Positions 10,106 to 62,890 of a stretch of DNA of 64,000 nucleotides are shown in pieces. The stretch's first letter is position 1, and each line of letters opens with the position of its first letter. The notes beneath the pieces were generated by a model. It worked only from the letters and a program-made list of their open reading frames with translations, ran no database searches and was not told the origin of the DNA. The DNA comes from Eubacteriales bacterium (GTDB lineage: Bacteria; Bacillota; Clostridia; Oscillospirales; Oscillospiraceae), in assembly GCA_030536515.1 (NCBI GenBank), contig JAUNPV010000010.1, forward strand, positions 1-64,000, in the 5' to 3' direction. The position numbers and the translations under genes were made by a program.

Positions 10106-10205
10106 CCTTCCCCCGGGGGGAAGGTGGATTGCCCGAAGGGCAAGACGGATGAGGAATGCGGGCGGAAACGTCATGTGCGGTACAGGGACGTGCCTCCACC
10201 CAGCT
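10106..10205. repeat. F1 repeat, left half only
   Basis: Starts with the F1 outer palindrome CCTTCCCCCGGGGGGAAGG, then the mini-hairpin TTGCCCGAAGGGCAA, then the F1 core beginning CGGATGAGGAATGCGGGC. The core stops at 10205. Its last 60 bases (10146-10205) recur inverted at 12331-12390 with 53 of 60 identical by eye count. Confidence 0.85.
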
Positions 10206-15472: not shown

Positions 15473-15684
15473 CCCCAATACCTTCCCCCGGGGGGAAGGT
15501 GGATTGCCCGAAGGGCAAGACGGATGAGGAATGCGGGCAGTAACCTAACGTGCGGTACAGGTCCGTGCCTGTTGGTGGGTTCGTTTATCATTCAGCAAGC
15601 ACTGACGGCTACGACATCCAGCCTTGCCGCCCGCATTCCTCATCCGTCACGGCTACGCCGTGCCACCTTCCCCCCGGGGGAAGG
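15473..15684. repeat. F1 repeat, full copy
   Basis: CCCCCAATA edge, outer palindrome, mini-hairpin TTGCCCGAAGGGCAA, core starting CGGATGAGGAATGCGGGC and closing GCCCGCATTCCTCATCCG, right mini-hairpin CACGGCTACGCCGTG, closing palindrome. The whole copy is a long imperfect inverted repeat. No gene is visible between 15352 and 16177. Confidence 0.85.
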
Positions 15685-15938: not shown

Positions 15939-16157
15939 CCTGTCGCCATCCCTCATCCGTCACGGCTACGCCGTGCCACCTTCCCCCCGGGGGAAGGTTT
16001 TTGCCCCCGCCGTAGGGGCGGGTTACCAACCCGCCCGTCGGCCCCCGGTGAGGGGGCCGCTTCCCGGTATAGCGGCTTGCGCCGCCTGATTTGCAGGAGG
16101 CAAATCAGCGGGAGGGATACTATCCCTCCCCTACGGGTGCGGGGGAAGGTATTGGGG
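15939..16157. repeat. F1 right half plus F3 direct copy 2
   Basis: 15939-15998 is the right half of F1 (CACGGCTACGCCGTG mini-hairpin and closing palindrome); 16033-16149 repeats 15696-15813 with one short indel. Relative to copy 1, an extra hairpin (GGGGCGGGTT-acc-AACCCGCCC) is present at about 16015-16036. Confidence 0.75.
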
Positions 16158-27687: not shown

Positions 27688-27890
27688 CCTTCCCCCTTGC
27701 GGGGAGAAGGTGCCCCAGTTCGCAAGCTGGGGCGGATGAGGGGTGTTCCCTCTTATGAGTTGTACCGCAGGGCGATGCCTCCCGAAGTGTAAGGGGAGCC
27801 ATTGCGCCCTGCGTGAGCACTCAGTTGTCGTACACCCCTCATCAGTCACCAGTCCGTGGACTGGTGACAGCTTCTCCCGAGGGAGAAGCC
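27688..27890. repeat. F1-type repeat inside the SRP operon
   Basis: Diverged F1 copy: outer stem CCTTCCCCCTTGCGGGGAGAAGG, left mini-hairpin CCCCAGTTCGCAAGCTGGGG, core CGGATGAGGGGTGT...ACACCCCTCATCAG, right mini-hairpin CACCAGTCCGTGGACTGGTG, outer stem again. It sits between khpA and rimM in the direction of transcription and would fold in the mRNA. Confidence 0.8.
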
Positions 27891-30489: not shown

Positions 30490-30634
30490 GTCATTGCGAA
30501 CCATCCCGCAGGATGGTGTGGCAATCCGTTCTCTTTTTCATTTTTCCAAAGGATAAATGAACTGATTGGTGCTATGCACCAATCAGTGGAAATGCGGATT
30601 GCCACGCCAGTCTGCGGACTGGCTCGCAATGACA
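30490..30634. repeat. F2 repeat, full copy
   Basis: TGTCATTGCGAACC, mini-hairpin CCATCCCGCAGGATGG, TGTGGCAATCCG, a central hairpin CTGATTGGTGC/GCACCAATCAG, then CGGATTGCCACG, mini-hairpin CCAGTCTGCGGACTGG, CTCGCAATGACA. The element is an inverted repeat overall. It is preceded and followed by AACGTCTAAAA/TTTAGGCGTT-like flanks. No gene in 30391-30686. Confidence 0.8.
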
Positions 30635-39070: not shown

Positions 39071-39217
39071 TGTCATTGTGAAGAAGTAGGGCACACTGGC
39101 GTGGCAATCCGCATCCCCTCTGTTTGGTGCATAGCACCCAGCAGTTCATTTTCCCTTCGGAAAAATGAAAAAGAGAACGGATTGCCACACCAGCCTGCTG
39201 GCTGGTTCGCAATGACA
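39071..39217. repeat. F2 repeat, full copy
   Basis: TGTCATTGTGAAG ... CGTGGCAATCCGC at left; GAACGGATTGCCACACC, mini-hairpin CCAGCCTGCTGGCTGG, TTCGCAATGACA at right. The middle shares TTTTTCATTTTTCC-like and GGTGCATAGCACC-like blocks with the 30.5-kb copy. Nothing coding in 39005-39357. Confidence 0.75.
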
Positions 39218-42890: not shown

Positions 42891-42989
42891 ATGTTTCTGC
42901 CCATTTCGAAGGAGGAAATGCTGGACCGGGGCTGGAAGAGCTGTGATTTTGTTTATGTCATTGGCGATGCCTATAGGGATTCCGTGTAG
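42891..42989 (+). pseudogene. 5' fragment of ygiQ (duplicated remnant)
   Basis: Codes [20 protein letters not shown] and twelve more residues, then a stop (TAG). The first 28 codons match the start of the intact ygiQ at 45102 with three substitutions, and the preceding promoter and AGGAGGTAGG box are duplicated too. The match ends at GDAY; the rest of the gene is missing. Confidence 0.88.
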
Positions 42990-43130
42990 CTATTGGGCTT
43001 TAACTTTTGCTGGAGCCTTGCCCTCGCTTGGGGCTTTATATGCGATTCCTGTTCGTCAGGCCAGAGATTTGCCTCCGCCTTCCTTCAGATTCCGCCTCAC
43101 GACGTACACCCTTGGCTTTGGCTATATTCA
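42990..43130 (-). other. Probable group II intron fragment (non-coding)
   Basis: Read on the minus strand this stretch contains GTGTACGTCGTGAGGCGGAA, TCTGAAGGAAGGCGGAGGCA, CTGACGAACAGGAATCGCAT and ATAGCTACACGGAATCC in that order, which I recognise as resembling domain I of clostridial group II introns. No reverse transcriptase and no domain V hairpin are present, so it is a scrap. Recognition is from memory, without a search. Confidence 0.5.
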
Positions 43131-50056: not shown

Positions 50057-50161
50057 TGTCATTGCGAGCCAGTGCGCACACTGGTGTGGCAATCCGTATT
50101 TCCCCTCATCGCAAGGAGGACGGATTGCCACACCATCCTGCGGGATGGTTCGCAATGACAA
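50057..50161. repeat. F2 repeat
   Basis: TGTCATTGCGAGCC, mini-hairpin CCAGTGCGCACACTGG, TGTGGCAATCCG, short centre, CGGATTGCCACA, mini-hairpin CCATCCTGCGGGATGG, TTCGCAATGACA. Confidence 0.8.
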
Positions 50162-54070: not shown

Positions 54071-54170
54071 TGTCATTGCGAAGCCAGTGCCGCCGCACTG
54101 GCTGTGGCAATCCGCTCTTTTTCCAGAGGACGGATTGCCACGCCAGTCTTTGGACTGGCTCGCAATGACA
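54071..54170. repeat. F2 repeat
   Basis: TGTCATTGCGAAGCCAGTGC ... CTGTGGCAATCCG, short centre, CGGATTGCCACG, mini-hairpin CCAGTCTTTGGACTGG, CTCGCAATGACA. It ends 30 bp before the mnmA start. 53845-54070 shows no gene. Confidence 0.8.
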
Positions 54171-58310: not shown

Positions 58311-58503
58311 CCCCAATACCTTCCCCCGGGGGGAAGGTGGATTGCCCGAAGGGCAAGACGGATGAGGGATGGCGAGCAGTTATGGCTTGCAGCATCTGAC
58401 GGTGGTGCATACAAGGTCCGACCTGTCGCCATCCCTCATCAGTCACCAGTCTGCGGACTGGTGCCAGCTTCCCCCCGGGGGAAGCTATTGGGCCGGGGGA
58501 AGG
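58311..58503. repeat. F1 repeat, full copy A
   Basis: CCCCAATACC edge, outer palindrome, left mini-hairpin TTGCCCGAAGGGCAA, core CGGATGAGGGATGGCG...CGCCATCCCTCATCAG, right mini-hairpin CACCAGTCTGCGGACTGGTG, closing palindrome. The core is nearly identical to copy B at 59753, but both mini-hairpins differ. 58198-58310 shows no gene. Confidence 0.85.
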
Positions 58504-58515
58504 TTTTTGGGTGCA

Positions 58516-58580
58516 CCCGTAGGGCCCGGCATCCTTGACGGGCCGCTGGCAGATCGGCACGTCCGGGAGGCCGTGCCCTC
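58516..58580. repeat. F6 inverted repeat, left copy
   Basis: CCCGTAGGGCCCGGCATCCT ... GGCACGTCCGGGAGGCCGTG; recurs inverted at 59664-59731 with only a few differences by eye. Confidence 0.8.
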
Positions 58581-58621
58581 CGCCGCAAACGAAAACCGGG
58601 AGCCTCAAGGCTCCCGGCTCA

Positions 58622-59209
58622 TTACAAGCCAAATGTTTTCCGATTTGTCTCAATGCCCAGCATTTCCCCGAATTCCATGGCCCAGGGAAGAAACCCGGAG
58701 CACATGGCCGTGACGATGTTCCCAGAGCGGAGGAAGCCCGCCGGGATGGGGTCCCGGAGGTTTGCAGGCCAGTCGTGGAGCAGCGCCAGCTCCTCCCGGG
58801 TGAAGCCCTCCTCCGCAAGGCCCCGGGCATCCACCCCGGCCATAAAGGGCTTTCCGGCCAGCATCCCCGCCTTCAGCAGCAGCACAGGCCCCACGGAAAT
58901 GGCCCCGATGGGCATTCCGTCGAATTTCCGAACAAAGTCCAGAACCGCTTCGTCCTCCACCGCCTCCCGGATATCCTCGGCCCCCGGCAGCAGCAGACTG
59001 TCAAACTGGGCAATATCCAGCTCCTCGATGGACTTATCCGGCATGACTGAAAGGCCCTCCTCGCTTTTCACCAGGGCCTTGCGTCTGGCAAACACGGTGA
59101 TGGGCTTTCCGGCCAGGGCCAGCATTTCCAGGGCGGGTGCAATTTCGAAATTGCAGAAGCCCGGGTAAATCAGCACCGCCGTCCGTTTCCTGGGCTCAGA
59201 CCCGTTCAT
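58622..59209 (-). CDS. DJ-1/PfpI superfamily protein lacking the nucleophile Cys
   Basis: 195 aa. FNFEIAPALEML holds the conserved acidic residue (Glu22), LLLPGAEDIREAVED and then the elbow GAISVGPVLLL, where the usual A-I-C-x-G cysteine is Ser105. Hence it is probably not a cysteine-dependent deglycase or protease of the YajL kind. GAGGAG 7 nt upstream supports ATG 59209. It overlaps the bPH gene end by 14 nt, so the two are co-translated. Function unknown. Confidence 0.87.
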   Translation of the reverse strand: MNGSEPRKRTAVLIYPGFCNFEIAPALEMLALAGKPITVFARRKALVKSEEGLSVMPDKSIEELDIAQFDSLLLPGAEDIREAVEDEAVLDFVRKFDGMPIGAISVGPVLLLKAGMLAGKPFMAGVDARGLAEEGFTREELALLHDWPANLRDPIPAGFLRSGNIVTAMCSGFLPWAMEFGEMLGIETNRKTFGL

Positions 59210-59588
59210 CATCCATCTCCTCGTCGTCATCGGCGCTGCTGGTCATAATCTCCCCCACCCGCATCCGGCGGCGGATTTTCATTTCCTCCACCTGGGTGTG
59301 GAGCTGCTCCTTGACGGCCAGGGGGTCCTTGATGTTTTTCAGCACCAGAGTTGGGGAGCTTTTGTCCGAGGACAGCACCGTCACCGTGCCCACGCCGAAA
59401 ATGCGCTGCCACAGGCTGCGGCTGGTCTGGATATCCCGGACCCGGTACAGCAGCAGCTCGTCATCCCGGATGCTGAGCAGCCCCTGGGACAAAAACAGCC
59501 GGTCCTCCGACAGGGCATACCGGGTAAAGCTCAGCGGCAGCCCGAAATACCGCTTCCGGTCAGACCAAAGATAAGAAATGTTGGACAT
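59196..59588 (-). CDS. Bacterial PH (bPH_2) domain protein
   Basis: 130 aa. LPLSFTRYALSEDRLFLSQG, RDDELLLYRVRDIQTSRSLWQRIFGVGTV and SPTLVLKNIKDP give the bPH_2 fold (YdbS/YvcA-like), usually next to membrane helices, but this one has none and ends in a long basic then acidic helix (RRRMRVGE...DDDEEMDDE). Coupled to the DJ-1-like gene. Role unknown. Confidence 0.88.
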   Translation of the reverse strand: MSNISYLWSDRKRYFGLPLSFTRYALSEDRLFLSQGLLSIRDDELLLYRVRDIQTSRSLWQRIFGVGTVTVLSSDKSSPTLVLKNIKDPLAVKEQLHTQVEEMKIRRRMRVGEIMTSSADDDEEMDDERV

Positions 59589-59663
59589 AAGTGTTCCTCC
59601 CCGTTTTTTCTTCCATTGTAAGTCCGGGAGAGCCGATTGTCAAGGAAAAACACGGAACCGCAA

Positions 59664-59731
59664 CCGTAGGGCACGGCCTCCCGGACGTGCCGTTCCGCCA
59701 GCGGCCCGTCAAGGATGCCGGGCCCTACGGG
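59664..59731. repeat. F6 inverted repeat, right copy
   Basis: Inverted counterpart of 58516-58580; ends CCGGGCCCTACGGG. Confidence 0.8.
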
Positions 59732-59752
59732 GTGGGGCAAATGAGCGGCGCA

Positions 59753-59947
59753 CCCCCAATACCTTCCCCCGGGGGGAAGGTGGCCGAGCGTAAGCGAGGT
59801 CGGATGAGGGATGGCGTGCAGTTATGGCTTGCAGCATCTGACGGTGGTGCATACAAGGTCCAATCTGTCGCCATCCCTCATCAGTCACCAGTGTTGCGAC
59901 ACTGGTGCCAGCTTCCCCCCGGGGGAAGCTATTGGGCCGGGGGAAGG
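59753..59947. repeat. F1 repeat, full copy B
   Basis: Same orientation and near-identical core to copy A, but left mini-hairpin CCGAGCGTAAGCGAGG and right mini-hairpin CCAGTGTTGCGACACTGG. With copy A it brackets the DJ-1/bPH pair. Confidence 0.85.
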
Positions 59948-62670: not shown

Positions 62671-62890
62671 CCCCAAAACCTTCCCCCGGGGGGAAGGTGC
62701 CCCAGTGCGCACACTGGGGCGGATGAGGAATGCGGGAGATAACGTGATGTGCGGTACAGCTACGGGCTTGCTGGCAGGTATTGTTTAGCATTCAGCAGGC
62801 ACGGACGTTTCCATCATCCAACGTTTCCGCCCGCATTCCTCATCCGTCACGGCTAACGCCGTGCCACCTTCCCCCCGGGGGAAGGTATTG
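62671..62890. repeat. F1 repeat, full copy
   Basis: CCCCAAAACC edge, outer palindrome, left mini-hairpin CCCCAGTGCGCACACTGGGG, core CGGATGAGGAATGCGGG...CCCGCATTCCTCATCCG, right mini-hairpin CACGGCTAACGCCGTG, closing palindrome. Confidence 0.85.

What the first reader, a model, noticed from the sequence alone, without database searches (positions are those of the whole stretch)
58311..59947. F1 repeats swap whole mini-hairpins between near-identical copies
Copies A (58311-58503) and B (59753-59947) have outer palindromes and a core of about 75 bp that differ at only about four positions by eye, yet the left mini-hairpin is TTGCCCGAAGGGCAA in A and CCGAGCGTAAGCGAGG in B, and the right one is CACCAGTCTGCGGACTGGTG in A and CCAGTGTTGCGACACTGG in B. 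Across the window the same slots also hold CCCCAGTGCGCACACTGGGG, CCCCAGTTCGCAAGCTGGGG and CACGGCTACGCCGTG. Point mutation would not preserve the core while replacing both arms of a stem. This looks like hairpin exchange by template switching, or a site where small palindromes are written in.
Basis: partly seen in the sequence, partly recalled or inferred. Interest (0 to 1): 0.72.

Follow-up and report, generated by a model that had tools for sequence, protein, structure and literature searches.

The report
Mini-hairpins that swap between DNA repeats
In this gut bacterium's genome, short repeated DNA elements that are otherwise nearly identical carry different tiny hairpins in fixed slots, and some of the same hairpins turn up inside an unrelated repeat family, so the hairpins are likely exchanged between copies as ready-made modules, probably by copying errors at folded DNA.

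Summary
Copies A and B differ at 3 of 80 core bases; the left mini-hairpin is wholly different, the right one in its inner part. The genome holds 116 exact half-units (reversed-pattern control 0). Slots are palindromes from a shared pool and nearly independent of the core: 8 of 61 F1 pairs with cores at least 90% identical share a slot. A second family, TCATTGCGA-hairpin-GCAATCC (189 matches), behaves alike (1 of 38) and shares 7 exact hairpins with F1 (0.08 expected for random stems). Both arms change together: 31 paired swaps and 20 symmetric indels against 14 single-arm substitutions and 1 single-arm indel. One orthologous locus in phage contigs differs by a whole slot between unchanged boxes. 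Against exchange in place: 51 of 51 loci with flanks at least 99.5% identical, and 3 of 3 at 94-99.5%, keep their tip; in relatives G432 and G017 slots follow the core better. I favour template switching between hairpin-bearing copies, with the fold under selection; gene conversion is the main rival. No Y1 transposase was found in the genome, so REPIN membership fails. Which enzyme moves the elements is unknown.

The parts
58311..58503 (+). Element copy A: two facing half-units around an 80-base core
58319..58339 (+). A, left outer palindrome plus GTG (G-type half-unit)
   Evidence: sequence
58340..58360 (+). A, left slot GATTGCCCGAAGGGCAAGACG
58361..58440 (+). A, core from GATGAGG box to CCTCATC box
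58441..58464 (-). A, right slot (C-type), GCACCAGTCCGCAGACTGGTGACT on its top strand
58465..58484 (-). A, right outer palindrome plus CTG
   Evidence: sequence
59753..59947 (+). Element copy B
59783..59802 (+). B, left slot GCCGAGCGTAAGCGAGGTCG (tandem G.A stem)
59803..59882 (+). B, core; 3 differences from A
59883..59908 (-). B, right slot GCACCAGTGTCGCAACACTGGTGACT on its top strand
10106..10154 (+). single F1-type half-unit, slot GATTGCCCGAAGGGCAAGACG
15481..15684 (.). F1-type pair with another core family (GATGAGGAATGCGGG), slots GATTGCCC... and GCACGGCGTAGCC...
15951..15997 (-). F1-type half-unit, slot GCACGGCGTAGCCGTGACG
27689..27888 (.). F1-type pair with other outer loops; slots CCCCAGTTCGCAAGCTGGGGCG and TCACCAGTCCACGGACTGGTGACT
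62679..62885 (.). F1-type pair; slots CCCCAGTGCGCACACTGGGGCG and GCACGGCGTTAGCCGTGACG
30491..30632 (.). second family (TCATTGCGA-tip-GCAATCC), inverted pair with different tips
39179..39215 (-). second family, single half-unit
50059..50158 (.). second family, inverted pair
54073..54168 (.). second family, inverted pair; one tip CCAGTGCCGCCGCACTGG is also an F1 slot elsewhere in the genome

Best explanation
The F1 repeats are inverted pairs of half-units (outer palindrome, mini-hairpin slot, GATGAGG box) whose mini-hairpins reassort among copies almost independently of the core, and the exchange likely happens by template switching (copy-choice) between repeat copies while the hairpins are single-stranded. 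Shown: the modular anatomy, the shared pool of slots, the near-absence of slot-core linkage in this genome, the paired arm changes, and the sharing of exact hairpins with a second family. Inferred: a nascent or displaced strand folds at a hairpin, re-anneals at the matching box or stem of another copy, copies its tip and returns; the same step inside one hairpin, arm copied from arm, would give the symmetric substitutions and indels. Inferred: the fold is kept by selection, probably as single-stranded DNA on the top strand of G-type half-units, because GN(N)A loops and G.A mismatches are nearly confined to that strand and a tandem-G.A stem persists uncorrected in several genomes. Untested: that an enzyme supplied in trans moves the elements.
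For: Slots of near-identical copies differ in 53 of 61 F1 pairs and 37 of 38 second-family pairs at core identity 0.9 or more. One slot pool serves several unrelated cores, and one alternative outer end occurs in 7 units with 6 different slots. 31 allele pairs differ by a Watson-Crick to Watson-Crick swap at one base pair (21 of transversion type) and 20 by a base pair gained or lost on both arms, against 14 single-arm stem substitutions and 1 single-arm indel. Seven hairpins are identical in F1 and the second family of this genome. One orthologous locus (L574, L560 against L575) has a wholly different slot between identical outer palindrome and box. Strand bias: GN(N)A loops 84 against 4, G.A or A.G mismatches 94 against 1 T.C or C.T; DNA energies favour the top strand 121 to 4 in G-type slots. 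Template switching is known to make and mend perfect stems in one event (PMC8794818, abstract seen).
Against: Tips stay put in 51 of 51 orthologous loci at 99.5% flank identity or more and 3 of 3 at 94-99.5%. A weak slot-core link remains (permutation p 0.02 at identity 0.9 and 0.05 at 0.65 for F1; 0.60 and 0.04 for the second family). In G432 and G017 slots follow the core better. C-type slots show no strand preference in energy (36 to 31). The tandem-G.A stem CCGAGC-GNNA-GCGAGG is not corrected to a perfect palindrome in 12 plus 7 units of several genomes, so arm-to-arm copying is not pervasive. Some of the 7 shared hairpins may be parallel mutants of one shared CCAGT hairpin. One odd pair among the 31 rests on a doubtful fold.
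Confidence: 0.45

Rival explanations
1. Ordinary ectopic gene conversion (RecA-type homologous recombination) between the many copies: shared outer palindromes, boxes and cores give homology on both sides and the slot between them is converted as a heterologous loop.
For: High copy number (116 F1 half-units; 189 second-family matches); identical outer palindrome and box on either side; slots shared by several core families; slot diversity is low where the pool is uniform, as in G017.
Against: Between unrelated core families only about 9 bases of box flank the slot on the core side (sequence); two families without common boxes share tips; conversion by itself does not create new paired-arm alleles.
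Confidence: 0.28
2. Stepwise compensatory mutation under selection for the hairpin fold, with slots diverging copy by copy.
For: Paired substitutions; strand-specific loops and mismatches suggest a constrained fold; 14 single-arm variants exist; orthologues across species show paired stem change (L142/L132 against L145).
Against: 21 of 31 paired swaps are transversion type and cannot pass through a G.T pair; 20 symmetric indels against 1 single-arm indel; identical long slots on unrelated cores need exchange.
Confidence: 0.14
3. Each new insertion is assembled by a recombinase acting on folded half-units, taking its two ends from different resident elements, as a transposition step rather than a copying error.
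For: Slots are stable in place but differ between copies; G-type slots prefer one strand; outer end, slot and core all reassort.
Against: No Y1 transposase in the genome; no enzyme identified; does not explain tips shared with another family.
Confidence: 0.1
4. Assembly artefact: repeats of different loci were mixed by the assembler.
For: The genome is a draft of 48 contigs, and many contigs of G432 end in or beside these repeats.
Against: A and B lie inside one contig with unique flanks; tips agree in 51 of 51 orthologous loci at 99.5% identity or more between contigs of the collection.
Confidence: 0.03

Closest known systems
REPINs / REP-RAYT elements (Bertels and Rainey 2011, PMC3116915; passages seen)
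   Same: Short, numerous, mostly inverted doublets of a palindromic unit with a spacer, predicted to fold as single-stranded DNA; compensatory changes in the stem were noted there too.
   Different: Here each unit has two hairpins with a freely exchanged slot; no Y1 transposase (PF01797) in the genome; no GTAG or CGTC tag seen at the units (sequence; the tags are known to me from the PMC3733652 listing).
[quoted passage not shown]
   Same: Short, non-coding by appearance, inverted ends, dispersed.
   Different: Ends carry interchangeable hairpins; target duplication not established; mobilising enzyme unknown.
Integron attC sites (PMC2727003, PMC6393395; abstracts in search listing)
   Same: Recognition of a folded single strand with a sequence-variable hairpin is the working analogy.
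   Different: No integrase, cassette or conserved attC boxes were looked for; an analogy only.
Pneumococcal BOX / RUP / SPRITE repeats (PMC3049150; start of abstract in listing)
   Same: Families of small interspersed repeats in a Firmicute.
   Different: Not compared by sequence; modular boxes there are recalled, and exchange of hairpins between families is not something I saw described.
Template-switch mutations and quasipalindrome correction (PMC8794818, PMC8604942, PMC7202029; abstracts)
   Same: One event can change both arms of a stem.
   Different: Described there within one locus; here tips seem to pass between loci and between repeat families.

Membership tests
REPIN (REP/RAYT) | Inverted doublet of a palindromic unit, many copies per genome | tested here: met
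   116 exact half-units, 48-49 paired elements
REPIN (REP/RAYT) | Y1 (RAYT-type) transposase in the genome | tested here: not met
   PF01797: 0 matches in the 98% complete genome; found in 5 of 14 control genomes
REPIN (REP/RAYT) | GTAG or CGTC tag at the foot of the palindrome | tested here: not met
   Units read GTG or CTG before and CG or ACT after the slot
MITE | Short element with terminal inverted repeats | tested here: met
   A: arms 58312-58340 and 58464-58492, 93% complementary
MITE | Target site duplication on insertion | tested here: inconclusive
   Filled and unfilled sites compared; no clean duplication read
MITE | Related autonomous element with a transposase | not tested
   Only PF01797 was searched
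Integron attC | Integrase and conserved attC boxes | not tested
   No search made
Rfam structured RNA | Match at gathering score over A or B | tested here: not met
   Only a group II intron at 42939-43106

The most novel reading that the evidence does not exclude
Gut Clostridia carry a genome-wide pool of mini-hairpin cassettes, about 10-40 bases long, that move between the slots of several non-homologous palindromic repeat families, keeping the fold but not the sequence: a hairpin-exchange process acting when repeats are copied, distinct from transposition of the repeats themselves.
Probability: 0.3. Interest if true: 0.85.

Novelty: new variant of a known kind. Interest (0 to 1): 0.64.

Why it matters
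How both arms of a stem change together is an old puzzle. Here hundreds of near-identical copies per genome, with conserved boxes on both sides of each slot as internal controls, make it directly testable whether template switching, gene conversion or selection does it. If tips really pass between unrelated repeat families, the hairpin would be a unit of exchange smaller than any mobile element I know of.

Tried and rejected
REP/RAYT membership was rejected after the PF01797 search. No Rfam family covers A or B. A hammerhead-like reading of CTGATGAG was considered from memory and dropped for lack of an Rfam match. One functional RNA spanning the element is disfavoured: G-type slots prefer their own top strand while the two half-units face each other, and many elements are G/G. 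Rapid rewriting in place is disfavoured.

Pairs with different tips at 100% flank identity (L090/L107/L407 and L093/L096) were mismatched units of tandem or clustered repeats; removes them by stricter offsets. The slot-core table dropped elements with equal core and slots; one search repeats it with copies separated by place, with nearly the same numbers. In one search one of the 31 paired swaps (GCCGAGCGCAAGCGAGGTCG / GCCGAGCGTAAGCAAGGTCG) rests on a doubtful fold.

Comparison of G432 with three relatives 87-91% identical: at the nine places printed (of 18 G432 stretches; 11 were used in the query) I saw no F1-type element aligned in place in the other species; one (L253/L272) has a CTCCCC-type cousin in the same gap. 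So slot change could not be dated that way. For the A-B neighbourhood no genus relative was above about 81% identity. Literature searches listed no description of these repeats; they cover open-licence papers only and the listings were capped.

Full report
What is there. The window is contig C3:1-64000 of a 2.63 Mb draft genome of 48 contigs. A relative of the same genus, G446, has a contig of the same length (34,156) and content as a contig of Oscillospiraceae isolate RGIG3015 from goat rectum, so the window comes from an Oscillospiraceae bacterium, by inference. Copies A and B are each two facing half-units around an 80-base core. A half-unit reads, on its top strand, CTTCCCCC-NN-GGGGGAAG, then GTG or CTG, a palindromic slot, then CG or ACT, then GATGAGG. 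I call them G-type (GTG...CG) and C-type (CTG...ACT). A and B differ at 3 of 80 core bases; the left slot differs completely, the right one in its inner part.

How many and where. The exact pattern occurs 116 times in this genome and 0 times in the reversed control; in 9 of 61 genomes of the genus, own included; in 4 of 393 genomes drawn from the class, own included; in 42 stretches of IMG/VR contigs; and, with a longer box, in 21 stretches of GTDB genomes, Oscillospiraceae or Clostridiales by title. A looser pattern over the sequence then held gave 376 half-units with 196 distinct type-and-slot combinations. Slots pair better than shuffled slots, 7.66 against 4.21 pairs. All patterns demand intact boxes, so decayed copies are under-counted.

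Slot against core. In this genome 48 elements fall into core families of 25, 12, 5 and 2 elements and four single ones, and the same slots recur in the larger families. With copies separated by place (49 elements) pairs share a slot in 8 of 61 cases at core identity 0.9 or more, 10 of 130 at 0.8-0.9, 30 of 569 at 0.65-0.8, 25 of 513 at 0.5-0.65 and 65 of 1499 below; a small link remains (permutation p 0.02 at 0.9, 0.05 at 0.65). The outer end varies too: an alternative end CGTCCCCCTTGC occurs in 7 units with 6 different slots and with several cores. In relatives the picture differs: G017 13 of 28 and G432 6 of 6 pairs at 0.9 or more share the slot, and G446 had no such pair. Decoupling is strong here and not universal.

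A second and third family. The F1 slot ACCAGTCCGCAGACTGGT was seen inside TGTCATTGCGA...TGGCAATCC. That family has 189 matches in this genome, 0 in the control, and occurs in 11 of 12 genomes tried. It also comes as inverted pairs; of 38 pairs with cores at least 90% identical only 1 shares a tip (27 elements), and two further hairpins inside its core vary by eye in the same way. From the listed part of the 189 matches, 46 inner hairpins of 5 base pairs plus loop were compared with 49 from F1: 7 are identical, also over 6 base pairs, against a mean of 0.082 and a maximum of 3 for random stems. Parallel mutation of one shared CCAGT hairpin may explain some of the seven, but not the shared hairpin itself. 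In G446 the listed second-family tips are rich in CCAGT while the listed F1 slots have none, so sharing is not uniform among genomes. A third family, TCATCCTGAG...AAGGATC, has the same plan in 5 of 8 genomes, not in this one; by eye it shares the GAGC-GNA-GCGA type.

How the arms change. Among distinct F1 alleles of one type and length, 31 pairs differ by a Watson-Crick to Watson-Crick swap at one base pair, 21 of them of transversion type; 20 pairs differ by one base pair gained or lost on both arms; 14 differ by a single-arm stem substitution and 1 by a single-arm indel. Loop changes are frequent (58 allele pairs with one loop change). Template switching can do such paired changes in one step (PMC8794818, abstract seen). 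Against it as the only force, the imperfect tandem-G.A stem CCGAGC-GTAA-GCGAGG recurs uncorrected in several genomes. The top strand carries GN(N)A loops 84 to 4 and G.A or A.G mismatches 94 to 1. DNA energies favour it in G-type slots 121 to 4, but not in C-type slots, 36 to 31; RNA energies give 92 to 5 and 31 to 37. Alleles are related, so these counts are not independent. I read them as selection for a folded single strand plus exchange.

Time. Among IMG/VR and GTDB loci, 616 flanked units of the three families gave 57 orthologous loci: 51 of 51 with flanks at least 99.5% identical, 1 of 1 at 97-99.5% (L095/L105, 98.5%) and 2 of 2 at 94-97% keep one tip; of 3 below 90%, one is unchanged, one differs by a base, and one has a wholly different slot. 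That last locus is L574 and L560 (slot GCGCGTAGCGCCG) against L575 (TCGCGCCGCTTCGCGGCGTGACG): outer palindrome and GATGAGG are the same, the left flank matches in 477 of 502 aligned columns, the right in 96 of 101 before it diverges. Across species, L142 and L132 against L145 show a paired stem change in place. Slots thus seem to change between copies far more readily than within one place, but only three loci cover the 94-99.5% range, and they come from other lineages than this genome.

Neighbours. In G432 several F1-type elements lie inside a larger end, AAATTGTGCTTTAGCTGATTAAG; at one orthologous site (L258/L277, left flank 89.9%) the relative has the same end but another interior, TTGACAATTGACAG. 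L122 and L111 show a full element against a single short hairpin at one site. Both suggest that nested inverted repeats can exchange inner parts at more than one level; this is inference.

Verdict. Template switching among copies is my preferred mechanism at 0.45, gene conversion next at 0.28. It works like a REPIN population, and in principle like folded attC sites, but it fails the RAYT test and is filed under no family. Papers: PMC8794818 abstract and start of introduction; PMC3116915 passages; PMC2727003, PMC6393395, PMC3049150, PMC8604942, PMC7202029, PMC2817692 and PMC3733652 search listings only.

Noticed in passing
window 58516-58582 and 59665-59731: A 67-base inverted repeat (96% complementary) of yet another palindromic type lies just inside A and B, flanking the two genes between them; a similar CCGTAGGGG... 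type sits at gene ends in relatives (L263, L265).
   Followed up: partly
window 42939-43106: Group II intron domain match (RF02001), the only Rfam match of the window at gathering score.
   Followed up: no
L090 2671-2856 and 4985-5103: Short tandem arrays of the TCATTGCGA family in a phage contig in which neighbouring units carry different tips.
   Followed up: partly
L258 against L277; L257 against L264; L254 against L286: The same larger end with a different palindromic interior at corresponding sites in two related species; the left flank aligns in all three, the right side is not clearly orthologous.
   Followed up: partly
L111 4650-4930 and 5280-5450 against L122: One site with an element facing an unfilled gap, another with an element facing a single terminator-like hairpin.
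   Followed up: no
G000 half-units with other outer loops, e.g. L207, L228: Many of these are preceded by A-runs (AAAG-CCTTCCCCC), so read outward they look like terminator hairpins followed by T-runs.
   Followed up: no
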